The translations under genes were made by a program, and so were the position numbers. This document shows, piece by piece, positions 3,290 through 7,359 of a stretch of DNA of 64,000 nt (its first letter is position 1; each line of letters starts with the position of its first letter). This stretch comes from Oxalobacteraceae bacterium AB_14 (GTDB taxonomy: Bacteria > Pseudomonadota > Gammaproteobacteria > Burkholderiales > Burkholderiaceae_D). The stretch is from NCBI GenBank assembly GCA_000381565.1, contig KB906725.1, positions 2,111,818 to 2,175,817 on the forward strand. Direction: 5' to 3'. Under the pieces are notes generated by a model. The model did not search any database, had not been told where the DNA came from, and saw only the letters and a list, made by a program, of their open reading frames with translations.

Positions 3290-3754
3290 TTACATGCCGG
3301 GCGCCGGCACCTCCGGGATCTGGTTGCGCAGGCTGGCGTTGATGGTGTTCCAACCCTTGATGACGGCGATGGTGTAGCTGATCTCGGCGATCTCGCCATC
3401 GGTGAAATGCTGCTGGAGCAGGGCGAAATCGTCGTCGCTCGGATGCCGGTGCGGGATCGCGTTGACCGCCTCGGCCCAGTTCAGCGCCGCCCGTTCGCGG
3501 TCGCTGAAGAACGGCGCCTCGCGCCAGCCGGCGATGGCGTTCAGGTGGCGCGGATTGGCTTCCTGCTTGATCAGGTCACGCCAGTGCATGTCGATGCACA
3601 CGCCGCAGCCGTTGACCTGCGACACCCGCAGATTGATCAGCTCCACCAGGCGCGCGCCCAGCGAACTTTTCTTGACGGCGCCGGACAGCGCGATCATCGC
3701 GTGCAGCTGGGCTTGTGCCAGTTGGAAGAAGGGGATGCGTGCGGAATGGTTCAT
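3290..3754 (-). CDS. Carboxymuconolactone decarboxylase / AhpD-like protein
   Basis: A 154-residue AhpD-like alpha-helical protein with the redox-type motif CGVCIDMH (about residue 50), typical of the peroxidase-active CMD branch. The start chosen is MNHSARIPFF at 3754, preceded by an AAGGCGA ribosome site; an upstream in-frame ATG at 3799 lies inside the promoter and is unlikely. The gene lies next to an ECF41 sigma factor, and its promoter has an exact ECF41-type motif. CMD proteins belong to the COE group (carboxymuconolactone decarboxylase, oxidoreductase, epimerase) usually controlled by ECF41. Probable role is reduction of a peroxide or other small oxidised substrate; the true substrate is unknown. 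Confidence 0.88.
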   Translation of the reverse strand: MNHSARIPFFQLAQAQLHAMIALSGAVKKSSLGARLVELINLRVSQVNGCGVCIDMHWRDLIKQEANPRHLNAIAGWREAPFFSDRERAALNWAEAVNAIPHRHPSDDDFALLQQHFTDGEIAEISYTIAVIKGWNTINASLRNQIPEVPAPGM

Positions 3755-3807
3755 GATGTCGCCTTTCAGTCGGTGAGGGCGCACCATTGCGCCCGCCATA
3801 CCTGTAA

Positions 3808-3834
3808 GACGCCCCGGCTTCGCGTTCTGTGACA
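3808..3834 (-). promoter_or_regulatory. ECF41-type promoter of the CMD gene
   Basis: On the minus strand, TGTCACA (3834-3828), then exactly 16 bases, then CGTC (3811-3808). This is the reported ECF41 consensus TGTCACA-N16-CGTC. It lies 54 bases before the CMD start codon. The same motif with the same spacing occurs before the sigma gene. Confidence 0.85.
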
Positions 3835-3851
3835 GCCTTTCTGAAAAAATC

Positions 3852-4739
3852 TCAAATAAATTGCGGCACCCCGGTCAGCTTGTCCGGATTGCGCACGATG
3901 AAGATCGCCGCGATGCGGCCATCCTCCACCTGGAAGGACTGCGCCGATTCCAGCTTGCCGTCCACGTAGCGCACCAGTCCCGGCGCGCCGTTGACGCGCG
4001 CCTGCCGGTAGGCGACCCGGTTCGGATTCTGATGCTCCAGCGACCAGTACACGCCGGCCACGCGGCCCGCGCCGTGCAGGATGTGCAGGAAGGAGTTGAC
4101 CTTGCCGCCGCCGTCGGCCACCAGCTGCACGTCGCCGGCCATCATCGCCTTCATGGCCGCGCGGTCGCCGACCTTGGCCGCCTCCATGAACCTGGCCAGC
4201 AAATCGCGATGCTGCTCCTTCGGCACGTCGAAGCGCGGCTTCTGCTGCTGCACGCGCTCCTGCGCGCGATGCACCATCTGCCGGCAGGCCGATTCGCTCT
4301 TGCCCAGCATGCCCGCGATATCGGCGTAGTCCTGGTCGAACACCTGCCGCATCAGGAACGCCGCGCGCTCCTCCGGCGACAGGCGCTCCAGCACCCACAG
4401 GAAGGCCATCGACACCTCGCTCGCCAGCTCCGCGCTGCTCTCCGGGGTGCGCTCATCGAGTTCGACGATGGGCTCCGGCAGCCACCAGCCGACATACGAT
4501 GCGCGCTCCGCCATGCGCGCGCGCAGGCGGTCGATGGCGAGGCGGGTGGTGATGGTCACCAGCCAGGCCTCGGCCGATCGCAGCGCCTGTTGTTCGCTGC
4601 CGTGCCAGCGCAGCCAGGCATCCTGCACCACGTCCTCGGCGTCGGCGCGGGTGCCGAGCATGCGGTAGGCGATGGCGAACAGCCGCGGGCGCAGCGCGGC
4701 GAAGGTGGCCAGTTCGGCGGGGGAGGTGGTCTCGGTCAT
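3852..4739 (-). CDS. ECF41-family RNA polymerase sigma factor with C-terminal SnoaL-like domain
   Basis: A 295-residue sigma factor. Region 2 (about 10-80) contains RLFAIAYRMLG and DAEDVVQDAWLRW; region 4 (about 115-170) contains the HTH with YADIAGMLGKSESACRQMVHRA. All three ECF41 signatures are visible: the linker WLPEP, then DGGGK and NPDKL in the C-terminal NTF2/SnoaL-like extension (about 185-295). In ECF41 this extension modulates activity in place of a separate anti-sigma factor. Start ATG at 4739 follows its own ECF41-type promoter. The next gene on the same strand, the CMD, carries the same promoter, so the pair forms a small regulon. Confidence 0.95.
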   Translation of the reverse strand: MTETTSPAELATFAALRPRLFAIAYRMLGTRADAEDVVQDAWLRWHGSEQQALRSAEAWLVTITTRLAIDRLRARMAERASYVGWWLPEPIVELDERTPESSAELASEVSMAFLWVLERLSPEERAAFLMRQVFDQDYADIAGMLGKSESACRQMVHRAQERVQQQKPRFDVPKEQHRDLLARFMEAAKVGDRAAMKAMMAGDVQLVADGGGKVNSFLHILHGAGRVAGVYWSLEHQNPNRVAYRQARVNGAPGLVRYVDGKLESAQSFQVEDGRIAAIFIVRNPDKLTGVPQFI

Positions 4740-4796: not shown

Positions 4797-4844
4797 TTTT
4801 ACTTGGCCGCGCGCGATTGAATTCCTGGCGTGCGTGGCGCCGCC

Positions 4845-5954
4845 TTAAGGCTTGACCTTTTCCTGCACCCGCGTGACGAGCACGTCGCCGTCGACGATGG
4901 TGCAGTCGATGATGTGGCTGTTCGACACCGGCGCGTGCCTGGAAAACAGGTCGTGGTACTTGCCCGGATCGTCCAGCCGCAGGTCGATGCGGAAGATGTC
5001 GAGCTTATTGCTTTCCTTGATCTGGCGCACGCGCTGCTTGCGGATGTCGGCCTCCTTGTCGCTGCGCCCGTGCATCTCCGGGCCTTCGAAGTAGCGTATC
5101 AGCGCGCATTCGATGACGTCGATGCGGTCCTTCATCAGCAAGTCGGCCGCCACCGGGTTGTCGTTGGCGGGCAGCTCGGCCGGGTCGCCGTCGTCGGAGA
5201 TCACTTCCACGTTCATGCGCTGGATCAGCAGCAGCATGTCGTTGTCTTCGCTGTTCTGCTGGTGGATGCGCTGCACCGCCGGCAGGCGCGCGCGCGCCAG
5301 GCGGCCGAGCGGGTCCTTGGTCTGGCCGACGTATTGCACCTTGCTCTGGAAGGTCAGCGAATTCTCGTATTTTTGCAGCACATCGTGGATCGACAGCGCC
5401 TCGATCAGGCCGCCCCAGTTCAGGGTGATGAAGCGGTCGGTGAGCACCACGCTCGGCTTCTTCAGCGTGGCGGCGAACGGCACTTCCAGGTCCAGCGTGA
5501 TGCTGTCGCGCTTTTCCTCGGCGCCCACCAGGATGGGCACCGTCAGCTTGAGCGAGAAGAAGCCCCAGCTGGTGTGGCGGCCGGTGTCGAAGCGCACGCG
5601 CGGACGGTTGATGGCGAAGAAGATCAGCCGCTTTTCCATCGTCGCTTCCAGGTCGAACTGCATGCGGCGCAGATGGCGGCCGACCGGGTCGCGGATGTCG
5701 GGAGTCTCGGGGAAGCCGGCCACCAGGTCGTACCAGTGGAATTTGGCGTCGGCCACAGTCACCGCCCAGGTTTGCGGTGCGCTGGTGCGCTGCGGCATCA
5801 GCGGCAGCAGCTCGTCGATCTGCTCGGCCGGGGCCGCCATCAAGTCATGGAACGGCTCCGGCGCTTCGGCGAACAAGGCCCCCACGCCCAACTCGTCCGG
5901 CGAGGGATCGGGATAGTCGTCATCAGCGATTATGGCTTTGTAATCGCTCGTCAT
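4845..5954 (-). CDS. Uncharacterised protein with GIY-YIG-like core (paralogue 1)
   Basis: A 369-residue protein without signal peptide or membrane segment. It shares most conserved blocks with the protein encoded directly upstream: KFHWYDLVAGF, DIRDP, PRVRFD, WGFFSLKL, VPFAAT, LNWGGLIEALSIHD. In the second half VQYVGQTKDPLGRL resembles the YIG and arginine motifs of GIY-YIG nucleases, and about 85 residues later IECALIRYFEGP resembles their glutamate helix. The expected GIY motif about ten residues before YVG is not recognisable, so activity is uncertain. Start ATG at 5954 has GGAG upstream. I do not recognise a named family; a nuclease-derived or nucleic-acid-linked role is inference only. 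Confidence 0.8.
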   Translation of the reverse strand: MTSDYKAIIADDDYPDPSPDELGVGALFAEAPEPFHDLMAAPAEQIDELLPLMPQRTSAPQTWAVTVADAKFHWYDLVAGFPETPDIRDPVGRHLRRMQFDLEATMEKRLIFFAINRPRVRFDTGRHTSWGFFSLKLTVPILVGAEEKRDSITLDLEVPFAATLKKPSVVLTDRFITLNWGGLIEALSIHDVLQKYENSLTFQSKVQYVGQTKDPLGRLARARLPAVQRIHQQNSEDNDMLLLIQRMNVEVISDDGDPAELPANDNPVAADLLMKDRIDVIECALIRYFEGPEMHGRSDKEADIRKQRVRQIKESNKLDIFRIDLRLDDPGKYHDLFSRHAPVSNSHIIDCTIVDGDVLVTRVQEKVKP

Positions 5955-6104
5955 GGCGTGCGCTCCAGGGTCTCATGTATTGGTTGGCCACAGTATAGTA
6001 CGTCCCTGCTGATATTTCCATACTGCAAGTTAGCACGGCGTGAATTCTCTGCACAATGTAACACCGTGGAGGCCGGCACGCACGCGCGCGCCGGCAAGCG
6101 GACC

Positions 6105-7142
6105 TCAGGACTTGGCTTTTTTTTCCTCCAGCGGCAGCGGCAGGGACGCGGCCATGGCCTGGCCGTTGGCGATGTGGCAGCTCAGCAGGTGGCGCTTGGC
6201 GCTGGCCGCGTGTTCGGAACACAGGTATTTGTAGCGGCCGGTGTCCTCGTACTGCAGGTCGATGGTGATCTGGGCAAGCTTGTGTTCGGCCTGGACCTCG
6301 GTCAGGCGGGCCGCGCGCAGCAGGCGCTGCTCCTGGTTGCGGGTGCGGGCGTTGGGGCCCTCGAAATAGCTAGCCAGCGCCGCTTCGATCGCGTCCATGC
6401 GTTCGGCCAGCAAGGCCTCGGCCGCCAGCGGGTGGGCGTTGTGCGGCGCCTCGGCCGGGTCGCCGTCGGCGCAGCTGACCCGTACGTCCAGCTGCTGCAC
6501 CAGCAGCAGCGTGTCGAAATGCTCGCTGTGCTGCGCGTGCAGCTTTTGCAGCGCCGGCAAGCGCCCTTTGCTGAGGCGGGCGTCATCGTCGCGGGTCTGG
6601 CCGACATACACCACCTTGCCCGGGATCTTCAGCGTGTGGGCGTAGGTCTGCAGGATGTCGTGGATGGACAGCGCTTCGATCAGGCCGCCCCAGTTCAGGG
6701 TGACGAAGTTCGGCGTCAGCGTCACGGTCGGCTTCTTCATGGTGGCCGCGAACGGCACCTTGAGCTCGATGGTGATGCTTTCCCTGGCCTCGTCCGCGCC
6801 CAGCAGCAGCGGCAAGGTCAGCTTGAGCGAGAAGAAGCCCCACTGGATCGCGCCCGCGATGTCGAAGCGCACGCGCGGGCGGACCACGGCGAAGAACAGG
6901 TGGTGCTGGGCCGCCGCCGCCTCCAGTTCGAACTGCATGCGGCGCTGGTAGCGGCCGATCGGGTCGCGGATGTCGGCCGCTTGCTGGAAGCCGGCCACCA
7001 GGTCATACCAGTGGAATTTGGCGTTGGCCACGCTGACCGCCCAGCTTTGCGGCGCGCCCGGCGCGGTTGGGGGAGAGGCTAAGACAGCGAACTGCTCAGA
7101 GTGAGGCTGCGAGGTCGTGGCAGCCAGCTCAGGAAAAGTCAT
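6105..7142 (-). CDS. Uncharacterised protein with GIY-YIG-like core (paralogue 2)
   Basis: A 345-residue paralogue of the next gene downstream, lacking about 30 residues of its N-terminal extension. It keeps the same blocks: KFHWYDLVAGF, DIRDP, PRVRFD, WGFFSLKLT, LNWGGLIEALSIHD. It also has the GIY-YIG-like VVYVGQTRDDDARL and the glutamate segment IEAALASYFEGP. The C-terminal third (IDLQYEDTGRYKYLCSEHA) is also conserved. Start ATG at 7142 follows AGGAG. The pair is on one strand, separated by 150 bp. Divergence is substantial but block order is identical, so this is an old tandem duplication. Function unknown. Confidence 0.8.
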   Translation of the reverse strand: MTFPELAATTSQPHSEQFAVLASPPTAPGAPQSWAVSVANAKFHWYDLVAGFQQAADIRDPIGRYQRRMQFELEAAAAQHHLFFAVVRPRVRFDIAGAIQWGFFSLKLTLPLLLGADEARESITIELKVPFAATMKKPTVTLTPNFVTLNWGGLIEALSIHDILQTYAHTLKIPGKVVYVGQTRDDDARLSKGRLPALQKLHAQHSEHFDTLLLVQQLDVRVSCADGDPAEAPHNAHPLAAEALLAERMDAIEAALASYFEGPNARTRNQEQRLLRAARLTEVQAEHKLAQITIDLQYEDTGRYKYLCSEHAASAKRHLLSCHIANGQAMAASLPLPLEEKKAKS

Positions 7143-7359
7143 AAAACTCCTGATTGGAAAGTTGAGATAGTGGTGACTGTCTCCCTTCCCATTCAGCGAG
7201 GTAGTGGCTTGCAGGAAATAAGTAATACTACGCAGTCGGTGCCGATTATTGCGTAGTTAAACTGCTTGAACAACCGATTAGTGTGCCTGTTCAAATGGCA
7301 GCGTTTTCATTGACTCGTCTATACAACGGTTAGCGGTATCAAATGCAAAATCGCCAATT
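7143..7359. other. Intergenic region with an inverted repeat and an open frame joined to gph
   Basis: ACTACGCA (7227-7234) and TGCGTAGT (7250-7257) form an 8-bp stem with an inner CGG/CCG, a possible operator or transcript hairpin upstream of paralogue 2. On the minus strand a frame different from gph runs into this region and stops at 7278; its last 30 or so codons (for example KIGDFAFDTANRCIDESMK) look protein-like and may be a gene remnant. Base composition is lower in GC than the neighbouring genes. Confidence 0.4.

What the first reader, a model, noticed from the sequence alone, without database searches (positions are those of the whole stretch)
4845..7142. Tandem paralogues with a GIY-YIG-like core in a large unknown fold
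Both proteins share long blocks with no family I recognise, plus YVGQT-(K/R)D...RL and an IE.AL..YFEGP segment matching the YIG, arginine and glutamate motifs of GIY-YIG nucleases. The GIY motif itself is missing. A duplicated, possibly catalytic or degenerate nuclease pair with an extra conserved N-terminal half could be part of an undescribed system.
Basis: partly seen in the sequence, partly recalled or inferred. Interest (0 to 1): 0.6.

Follow-up and report, generated by a model that had tools for sequence, protein, structure and literature searches.

The report
Split GIY-YIG nuclease-like gene pair
Two neighbouring duplicated bacterial genes look like altered versions of a DNA-cutting enzyme whose core is split by an inserted domain; distant relatives sit on viruses and plasmids, one in a place that holds anti-virus genes, so an undescribed defence-type nuclease is likely but untested.

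Summary
Two tandem minus-strand genes (4845-5954, 369 aa; 6105-7142, 345 aa) are 53% identical over 310 aa and share YVGQT(K/R)D..RL and IE.AL..YFEGP. No Pfam, NCBIfam or PADLOC family matches; both match phrog_7779 (function unknown). Profile comparison joins them, over 235 columns, to phrog_15714, a family with a full Eco29kI-like GIY-YIG residue set (HIY, YVG, R, H, E, N). By that alignment the GIY motif is not missing: it lies about 95 residues before YVGQT, beyond an inserted beta domain, with Phe for Tyr in both window proteins. Fold searches returned no GIY-YIG structure, so fold and residue clustering stay inferred.

The genes follow ubiG-gph in 60 of 60 Duganella-group loci read; 69 of 74 same-genus genomes carry the family, 0 of 397 others in a phylum sample. 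P0001-type sequences keep Tyr-Tyr-Arg-Glu in 33 of 38 cases, P0002-type in 0 of 30. A distant relative sits in an E. coli prophage slot where 4 of 8 other prophages inspected carry known defence genes. Best reading: a split GIY-YIG nuclease family, probably anti-phage in origin, fixed in Duganella as a tandem pair with a decaying catalytic centre.

The parts
4845..5954 (-). P0001, 369 aa, copy B (second gene of the pair)
   Evidence: phrog_7779 E 3.2e-20
6105..7142 (-). P0002, 345 aa, copy A (first gene, next to gph)
   Evidence: phrog_7779 E 6.1e-10
5601..5627 (-). P0001 residues 110-118, candidate GIY strand (LIFFAINRP; Tyr replaced by Phe112)
   Evidence: hhalign to HIYLI of phrog_15714 proteins; strand 111-118 in model; Tyr in 36 of 38 P0001-type sequences
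5346..5600 (-). P0001 residues 119-203, beta-rich insert between the GIY-like and YIG-like strands
   Evidence: model secondary structure; the VIA rows with Z 2 or more all fall here, best Z 3.8
5298..5339 (-). P0001 residues 206-219, YIG-like half with Tyr208, Gly210, Arg218
5085..5117 (-). P0001 residues 280-290, helix with Glu282 (VIECALIRYFE)
   Evidence: helix 267-290 in model
6876..6902 (-). P0002 residues 81-89, candidate GIY strand (HLFFAVVRP, Phe83)
   Evidence: ungapped alignment to P0001; Phe in 30 of 30 P0002-type sequences
6573..6614 (-). P0002 residues 177-190, YIG-like half (Tyr179, Arg189)
6360..6392 (-). P0002 residues 251-261, Glu253 segment
5992..6020 (-). promoter-like site of copy B: TGGAAA, 17 bp, TATACT
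   Evidence: T(G/A)GAAA-17-TATA(A/C)T in 22 of 22 upstream regions compared, 21 of the 25 two-copy loci plus the window; consensus match only

Best explanation
The pair belong to a GIY-YIG-derived nuclease family in which a beta domain is inserted between the GIY-like strand (residues 110-118 in P0001) and the YIG-like strand (204-211), followed by the usual Arg and the helix with Glu. The ancestral job, kept by relatives on prophages and plasmids, is most likely to cut invading DNA as a single-gene anti-phage function. In the Duganella group the gene became fixed behind ubiG-gph and was duplicated; P0001-type copies usually keep Tyr-Tyr-Arg-Glu and may still cut or nick nucleic acid, P0002-type copies have lost the GIY tyrosine in all sequences seen and probably bind DNA or partner the other copy. 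In this genome P0001 too has Phe at that place, so both copies are predicted to be weak or inactive as nucleases. Shown: the pair, its fixed locus, residue drift, homology to phrog_15714, the E. coli defence slot. Inferred: GIY-YIG fold, the split, DNA as substrate, anti-phage role, partnership.
For: hhalign to phrog_15714 proteins 98.2%, E 4.8e-14; a profile of 25 such proteins finds P0001-type genes at 2.6e-4, 3.8e-4 and 9.9e-4 in three genus genomes. Their Y65, Y162-G164, R177, H181, E251, N263 have the same Arg-to-His (4) and Glu-to-Asn (12) spacing as R.Eco29kI Y49, Y76, R104, H108, E142, N154 (PMC1952068, abstract and passages). UvrC profile against the phrog_15714 core: 77.6%, E 1.9e-5 over 24 columns; against the A3 core: 14.4%, E 0.0019 over YVG..R; reversed controls 0.039 and 0.17. 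Profile against PDB sequences: UvrC GIY-YIG domain E 0.0032 with 8 sequences, 0.1 with 25. Secondary-structure order agrees in the two models by my comparison. Defence context: E. coli slot with BovA, dGTPase, Dsr1, dCTPase in 4 of 8 other prophages inspected; one phrog_15714 gene near HamA, one near an E1-like gene (PADLOC E1-E2, 6.3e-6).
Against: No significant structural match for either full model and no GIY-YIG chain among the 50 Foldseek rows listed per search or the VIA rows with Z 2 or more. Direct UvrC against full A3 is only 5.4% probability. The 25-row phrog_15714 profile finds nothing in the window's own genome and reaches the family in only 3 of 74 genus genomes. Pfam RE_Eco29kI and GIY_YIG_2 stay below cut-off in phrog_15714 members (best 0.041 and 0.014), where unrelated families reach similar values (DUF6441 0.0059); NCBIfam is alike (uvrC-type models 0.045-0.063, unrelated ones from 0.015). 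Across 98 distinct sequences 13 positions never change (W74, Y75, D76, R117, R121, K166, P167, H190, G210, T212, D239, F289, H347), and the catalytic Arg and Glu are not among them, so the conserved function may not be cleavage. The Duganella-group genes lack the His and Asn of the GIY-YIG set. A fixed, near-universal locus is unusual for a defence gene. Neighbours of only two phrog_15714 loci were tested with PADLOC, chosen by eye.
Confidence: 0.5

Rival explanations
1. A GIY-YIG-derived scaffold whose nuclease centre is no longer the point in this family: the invariant set (W74-Y75-D76, R117, R121, K166, H190, D239, H347) forms a different binding or catalytic site, for example for RNA, a nucleotide or a partner protein, and Tyr/Arg/Glu are remnants.
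For: Thirteen positions never vary in 98 distinct sequences, while Y112/Y208/R218/E282 are complete in only 10 of 23 single-copy and 0 of 30 P0002-type sequences.
Against: All 7 distinct gammaproteobacterial relatives (phage, plasmid, viral contigs, one Dryocola contig) and 33 of 38 P0001-type sequences keep the four residues; R117, R121 and K166 could simply bind DNA phosphate.
Confidence: 0.25
2. A housekeeping DNA repair or recombination nuclease of the Duganella group, unrelated to defence, co-inherited with ubiG-gph; mobile elements picked up relatives independently.
For: Fixed position in 60 of 60 loci read, 67 of 71 good-quality genus genomes, own conserved promoter-like site.
Against: Only 1 of 44 genera positive in the taxonomic family sample and 0 of 397 other genomes in a phylum sample; less conserved than its neighbours, e.g. 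Duganella sacchari against the window: gyrA 95%, ubiG 92%, gph 85%, copy B 80%, copy A 62%; copy A shortened or split in 2 of 25 two-copy loci.
Confidence: 0.15
3. Not GIY-YIG at all: short motif resemblance in an unrelated alpha/beta fold.
For: No structural match found; direct profile match to UvrC is weak; family-library hits are at chance level.
Against: The phrog_15714 family, homologous by profile, has the six-residue set with Eco29kI spacing, and UvrC is the best PDB sequence match of its profile.
Confidence: 0.1

Closest known systems
phrog_7779 (PHROGs, unknown function)
   Same: Both window proteins match over most of their length (3.2e-20, 6.1e-10).
   Different: No function is recorded; window members are chromosomal, duplicated and partly degenerate.
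phrog_15714 (PHROGs, unknown function; proteins from viral contigs, plasmids and genomes)
   Same: Homologous over P0001 residues 104-353; same order of secondary structure by my comparison.
   Different: Keeps HIY, R..H and E..N, which the window proteins have partly lost; no WYD motif in its N-terminal part by eye.
R.Eco29kI (type II restriction GIY-YIG nuclease; PMC1952068, abstract and passages)
   Same: phrog_15714 shares residue set and R-to-H and E-to-N spacing; sub-threshold Pfam match in 6 of 25 members.
   Different: 27 residues between its two tyrosines against 96 here; no DNA methyltransferase among the adjacent frames as I read them.
UvrC N-terminal GIY-YIG domain
   Same: Similar YVG..R and E..LI..P.YN segments.
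   Different: Short hairpin without insert; repair enzyme with other domains (recalled).
SNIPE (GIY-YIG plus DUF4041 defence nuclease; PMC13190303, passages)
   Same: Single-gene defence nuclease of GIY-YIG type.
   Different: No DUF4041 hit in the window proteins; membrane helix not tested.

Membership tests
GIY-YIG nuclease superfamily | GIY half-motif with Tyr on the first strand | tested here: inconclusive
   Aligned strand at 110-118; Phe112 in P0001, Phe83 in P0002; Tyr in 36 of 38 P0001-type and 7 of 7 gammaproteobacterial sequences
GIY-YIG nuclease superfamily | YIG half-motif (Tyr, Gly) | tested here: met
   Y208-V-G210; Gly in 98 of 98, Tyr in 91 of 98
GIY-YIG nuclease superfamily | Arg about 10 residues after the YIG Tyr | tested here: met
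   R218 in P0001, R189 in P0002; in the family Arg 83 of 98, Lys 9, Gln 4, Leu 2
GIY-YIG nuclease superfamily | His or Tyr shortly after the Arg | tested here: not met
   Position 222 is Ala or Gly in all 91 Duganella-group sequences; the gammaproteobacterial rows shown have His at 224
GIY-YIG nuclease superfamily | Glu on the helix after the third strand | tested here: met
   E282, helix 267-290; Glu in 94 of 98
GIY-YIG nuclease superfamily | C-terminal Asn | tested here: not met
   Met294 in P0001; Gln in 8 of 8 gammaproteobacterial rows. The Slx1 group also lacks it (PMC1564403, passages)
GIY-YIG nuclease superfamily | GIY-YIG fold with the residues clustered | tested here: inconclusive
   No GIY-YIG chain among rows listed, which the beta insert fills; coordinates not available
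GIY-YIG nuclease superfamily | Metal-dependent nuclease activity | not testable with these tools
   needs protein
phrog_7779 | Profile match over most of the length | tested here: met
Known anti-phage system (PADLOC-DB 2.0.0) | Match to a defence protein model | tested here: not met
   0 families for both proteins; 0 of 25 phrog_15714 members at E 0.01
Known anti-phage system (PADLOC-DB 2.0.0) | Location in a defence slot | tested here: inconclusive
   True for the E. coli prophage relative; the window genes sit at a fixed locus
SNIPE | DUF4041 domain | tested here: not met
   no such Pfam hit up to E 10

The most novel reading that the evidence does not exclude
phrog_7779 and phrog_15714 form one undescribed superfamily of anti-phage GIY-YIG nucleases in which a beta domain is inserted inside the GIY-YIG hairpin; in Duganella it was captured from mobile elements, fixed behind ubiG-gph and split into a nuclease-type copy and a pseudo-nuclease copy that work together, with a second invariant residue set doing recognition.
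Probability: 0.3. Interest if true: 0.72.

Novelty: new variant of a known kind. Interest (0 to 1): 0.55.

Why it matters
If right, two PHROG families without any recorded function become testable as anti-phage nucleases, and the GIY-YIG superfamily gains a layout that none of the Pfam models recognises above cut-off: a domain inserted between its two name-giving strands. It would also explain why motif reading and fold search miss these proteins. The Duganella pair would be an example of a mobile defence-type gene turned into a near-core chromosomal pair with one decayed copy.

Tried and rejected
Fold search with the whole P0001 model (PDB, viral, VIA) and the whole phrog_15714 model (PDB, VIA) gave no significant match; only 50 Foldseek rows per search are printed, and the VIA rows cover the beta insert. 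By the tool's own notes this is inconclusive. The C-terminal core was not folded alone, because the two structure jobs went to full-length proteins. Another candidate for the GIY strand, S188-I189-H190 (His190 is invariant), was set aside because the profile alignment places residues 110-118 on HIY.

Viral-contig scan with P0001 alone found nothing. One phrog_15714 gene (L174) found nothing in E. coli genomes. PDB sequence search with A3 gave two hits at E 0.6-0.7 to a sulfotransferase fusion, taken as chance. phrog_15714-type L116 found nothing in the phage collection. A first count of catalytic residues used 150 rows not fully dereplicated; the report uses the 98-row recount, from which rows under 250 residues had been dropped. 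The labels P0001-type, P0002-type and single-copy in those counts come from nearest identity to reference sequences, not from position; a few first genes of pairs (e.g. L062) count as P0001-type, and in the tree the P0002 type branches inside the P0001 type. The 25-row phrog_15714 set leaves out 8 of the 33 proteins collected (near duplicates or fragments).

Print: searches for phrog_7779/phrog_15714 (0 papers) and GIY-YIG with Duganella (0 papers). Searches were read as capped listings and gave no title on such a family; only open-licence PMC papers are held, so this is no proof of absence.

Full report
What is there. Window 4845-5954 (minus, 369 aa, P0001) and 6105-7142 (minus, 345 aa, P0002) are two open frames 150 bases apart, 53% identical over 310 aa without a gap. 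Pfam, NCBIfam and PADLOC give nothing above cut-off. Both match phrog_7779, unknown function, and P0001 weakly matches phrog_15714 (E 0.017). The neighbour names gph, ubiG, ompA, gyrA and CMD are my reading of the sequences, from no family search.

Where it occurs. In the own genus 69 of 74 genomes carry the family (67 of 71 of good quality); in a sample of 97 genomes of the taxonomic family 4, all in the own genus; in a phylum sample 1 of 398, the own genome. A genome-collection scan gave 41 loci: 40 from Duganella, Rugamonas, Pseudoduganella, Massilia and allied records and one from Dryocola. The closest is Duganella sp. BJB476, 95% identical to P0001. I read 60 Duganella-group loci (20, 40; some are the same genome in two collections; the Dryocola locus was left out). 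In all 60 the gene comes next after ubiG-gph among the genes I searched for, about 70-530 bases on, mostly with gyrA and ompA before them. Of the 40 loci, 25 have two copies and 15 one. Copy A is shortened or split in 2 of the 25 (L074, L082), copy B in none. Of the five genus genomes without the gene, four have a close gph; in the two I inspected (L185, L187) no family frame follows it within 1.5 kb.

Distant relatives, about 20-25% identical, are mostly on mobile DNA: E. coli phage PhiR63_1 next to its integrase, the only credible match in 50,697 phage records; a conjugative Serratia plasmid; four A. baumannii records, one inspected, about 1 kb from transposition genes; seven viral contigs. 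In E. coli 60 of 5426 genomes hold at least 80% of a 2001-base query. In the one E. coli genome I opened the gene lies in a prophage next to yjjG, between integrase and a DUF551 gene. I looked at eight other prophages in that place, picked from the listed rows, not at random: L113, L115, L190-L195. Four carry PADLOC-recognised defence proteins: BovA, dGTPase, Dsr1 and dCTPase; L113, L190 and L192 carry proteins without a match, L115 one with a weak restriction-enzyme match (E 0.0012). In two of the eight (L192, L195) no DUF551 gene is annotated. So this looks like a defence-cargo slot. That prophages carry such slots is known (PMC9519451 and PMC10121019, passages).

The link to GIY-YIG. Following phrog_15714 (2 of 398 phylum genomes; 34 plasmid records; 24 viral loci) gave 33 proteins, of which 25 were aligned (A5); all 25 match phrog_15714. 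hhalign of the window family (A3, 42 rows) with eight of them (A4): 98.2%, E 4.8e-14, 235 columns, P0001 residues 104-353. In A5 ten columns are invariant, and most are GIY-YIG residues or their neighbours: Y65 in HIY, Y162 and G164 in YVG, L178, E251, L254, I255, F258, P260, N263, with R177 and H181 at 90% or more. The spacing R-to-H (4) and E-to-N (12) equals that of R.Eco29kI (PMC1952068). Y65 is the only invariant residue before Y162. A profile of eight finds the UvrC GIY-YIG domain in PDB at 0.0032; with 25 members the same hit is 0.1. Pfam RE_Eco29kI is a sub-threshold match in 6 of 25 and GIY_YIG_2 in 2 of 25, but unrelated families reach similar values (NCBIfam alike). UvrC against the A5 core: 77.6%, E 1.9e-5, over the Glu-to-Asn segment; against full A5 59.4%, E 9e-5; against the A3 core 14.4%, E 0.0019, over YVG..R; against full A3 5.4%, E 0.0072; reversed controls 0.039 and 0.17. 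The A5 profile reaches P0001-type genes in three genus genomes (2.6e-4 to 9.9e-4) but finds nothing in the window's own genome. The direct link is thus weak and the indirect one good.

The split. hhalign sets EKRLIFFAINRPRVRFD of P0001 on NNCHIYLIGKTPIVSYS. In phage and Acinetobacter relatives the same place reads FIYF. So the GIY-like strand is 110-118 and the YIG-like strand 204-211, with beta strands between them (pLDDT 84.4, pTM 0.81; phrog_15714 model: pLDDT 86.3, pTM 0.85, same element order by my comparison). That these two strands pair is inferred; I had no coordinates. Fold searches gave nothing significant: P0001 best E 0.073 in PDB and 0.0052 (probability 0.33) in the viral library, VIA Z at most 3.8; phrog_15714 model best E 0.012, Z at most 3.2.

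Catalytic state. In 98 distinct sequences the set Tyr112-Tyr208-Arg218-Glu282 is complete in 33 of 38 P0001-type, 0 of 30 P0002-type, 10 of 23 single-copy and 7 of 7 gammaproteobacterial sequences. P0001 of this window is one of two P0001-type sequences with Phe112. The gammaproteobacterial relatives also have His224 and Gln294, reminiscent of Gln169 in the R.Hpy188I model (PMC2630997, abstract and passages); the Duganella-group genes do not. Against this reading, thirteen positions are invariant in the 98; of the YIG half only Gly210 and Thr212 are among them, so a second site may carry the conserved function. Copy A has the higher dN/dS in 65 of 78 non-independent genome pairs.

Regulation. 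Copy B has a T(G/A)GAAA-17-TATA(A/C)T site in 22 of 22 upstream regions compared, with a palindrome-like TT(T/G)CC-N4-GGAAA over the -35 in 16 of 22, not in the window itself.

Verdict. Observation confirmed. GIY-YIG origin likely (my estimate about 0.75), defence as ancestral role about 0.5, present activity of the window copies doubtful. Class: new variant of a known kind.

Noticed in passing
L190:3234-4229, L192:3056-4297, L113:3012-3731, L115:2879-3694: Four proteins without a clear family in the same E. coli prophage slot that elsewhere carries Dsr1, dCTPase, dGTPase and BovA; candidates for undescribed defence genes.
   Followed up: partly
L155-L178, L116, L117, L148-L154: phrog_15714 proteins with a near-complete GIY-YIG residue set on viral contigs, plasmids and genomes, one near HamA and one near an E1-like gene; no Pfam or PADLOC family covers the 25 scanned.
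   Followed up: partly
window 5992-6020: Conserved promoter-like site of copy B; in 16 of 22 regions compared a palindrome-like TT(T/G)CC-N4-GGAAA overlaps its -35, as if for a repressor. The window itself lacks it.
   Followed up: partly
window 7206-7236 and 6054-6064: A stretch CTGCGTAG..TTACTTA upstream of copy A recurs in 14 of 16 regions by eye, and GTGTTACATTG upstream of copy B in 17 of 22, while the rest of the spacers varies.
   Followed up: no
window 3290-4739: ECF-type sigma factor (sigma regions by Pfam) and a gene I read as carboxymuconolactone-decarboxylase-like lie downstream of the pair; the sigma gene was found in 18 of 60 related loci within the stretch fetched.
   Followed up: partly
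window 4830-7082 (+): A 750-aa antisense frame is open across both genes; a long antisense frame also covers gyrA, so it looks like a high-GC artefact.
   Followed up: no
L110:1500-2523: One viral contig carries a frame-broken copy of the phage relative.
   Followed up: no
L179, L180: Two genomes of the same genus carry a phrog_15714 protein besides the fixed family gene.
   Followed up: no
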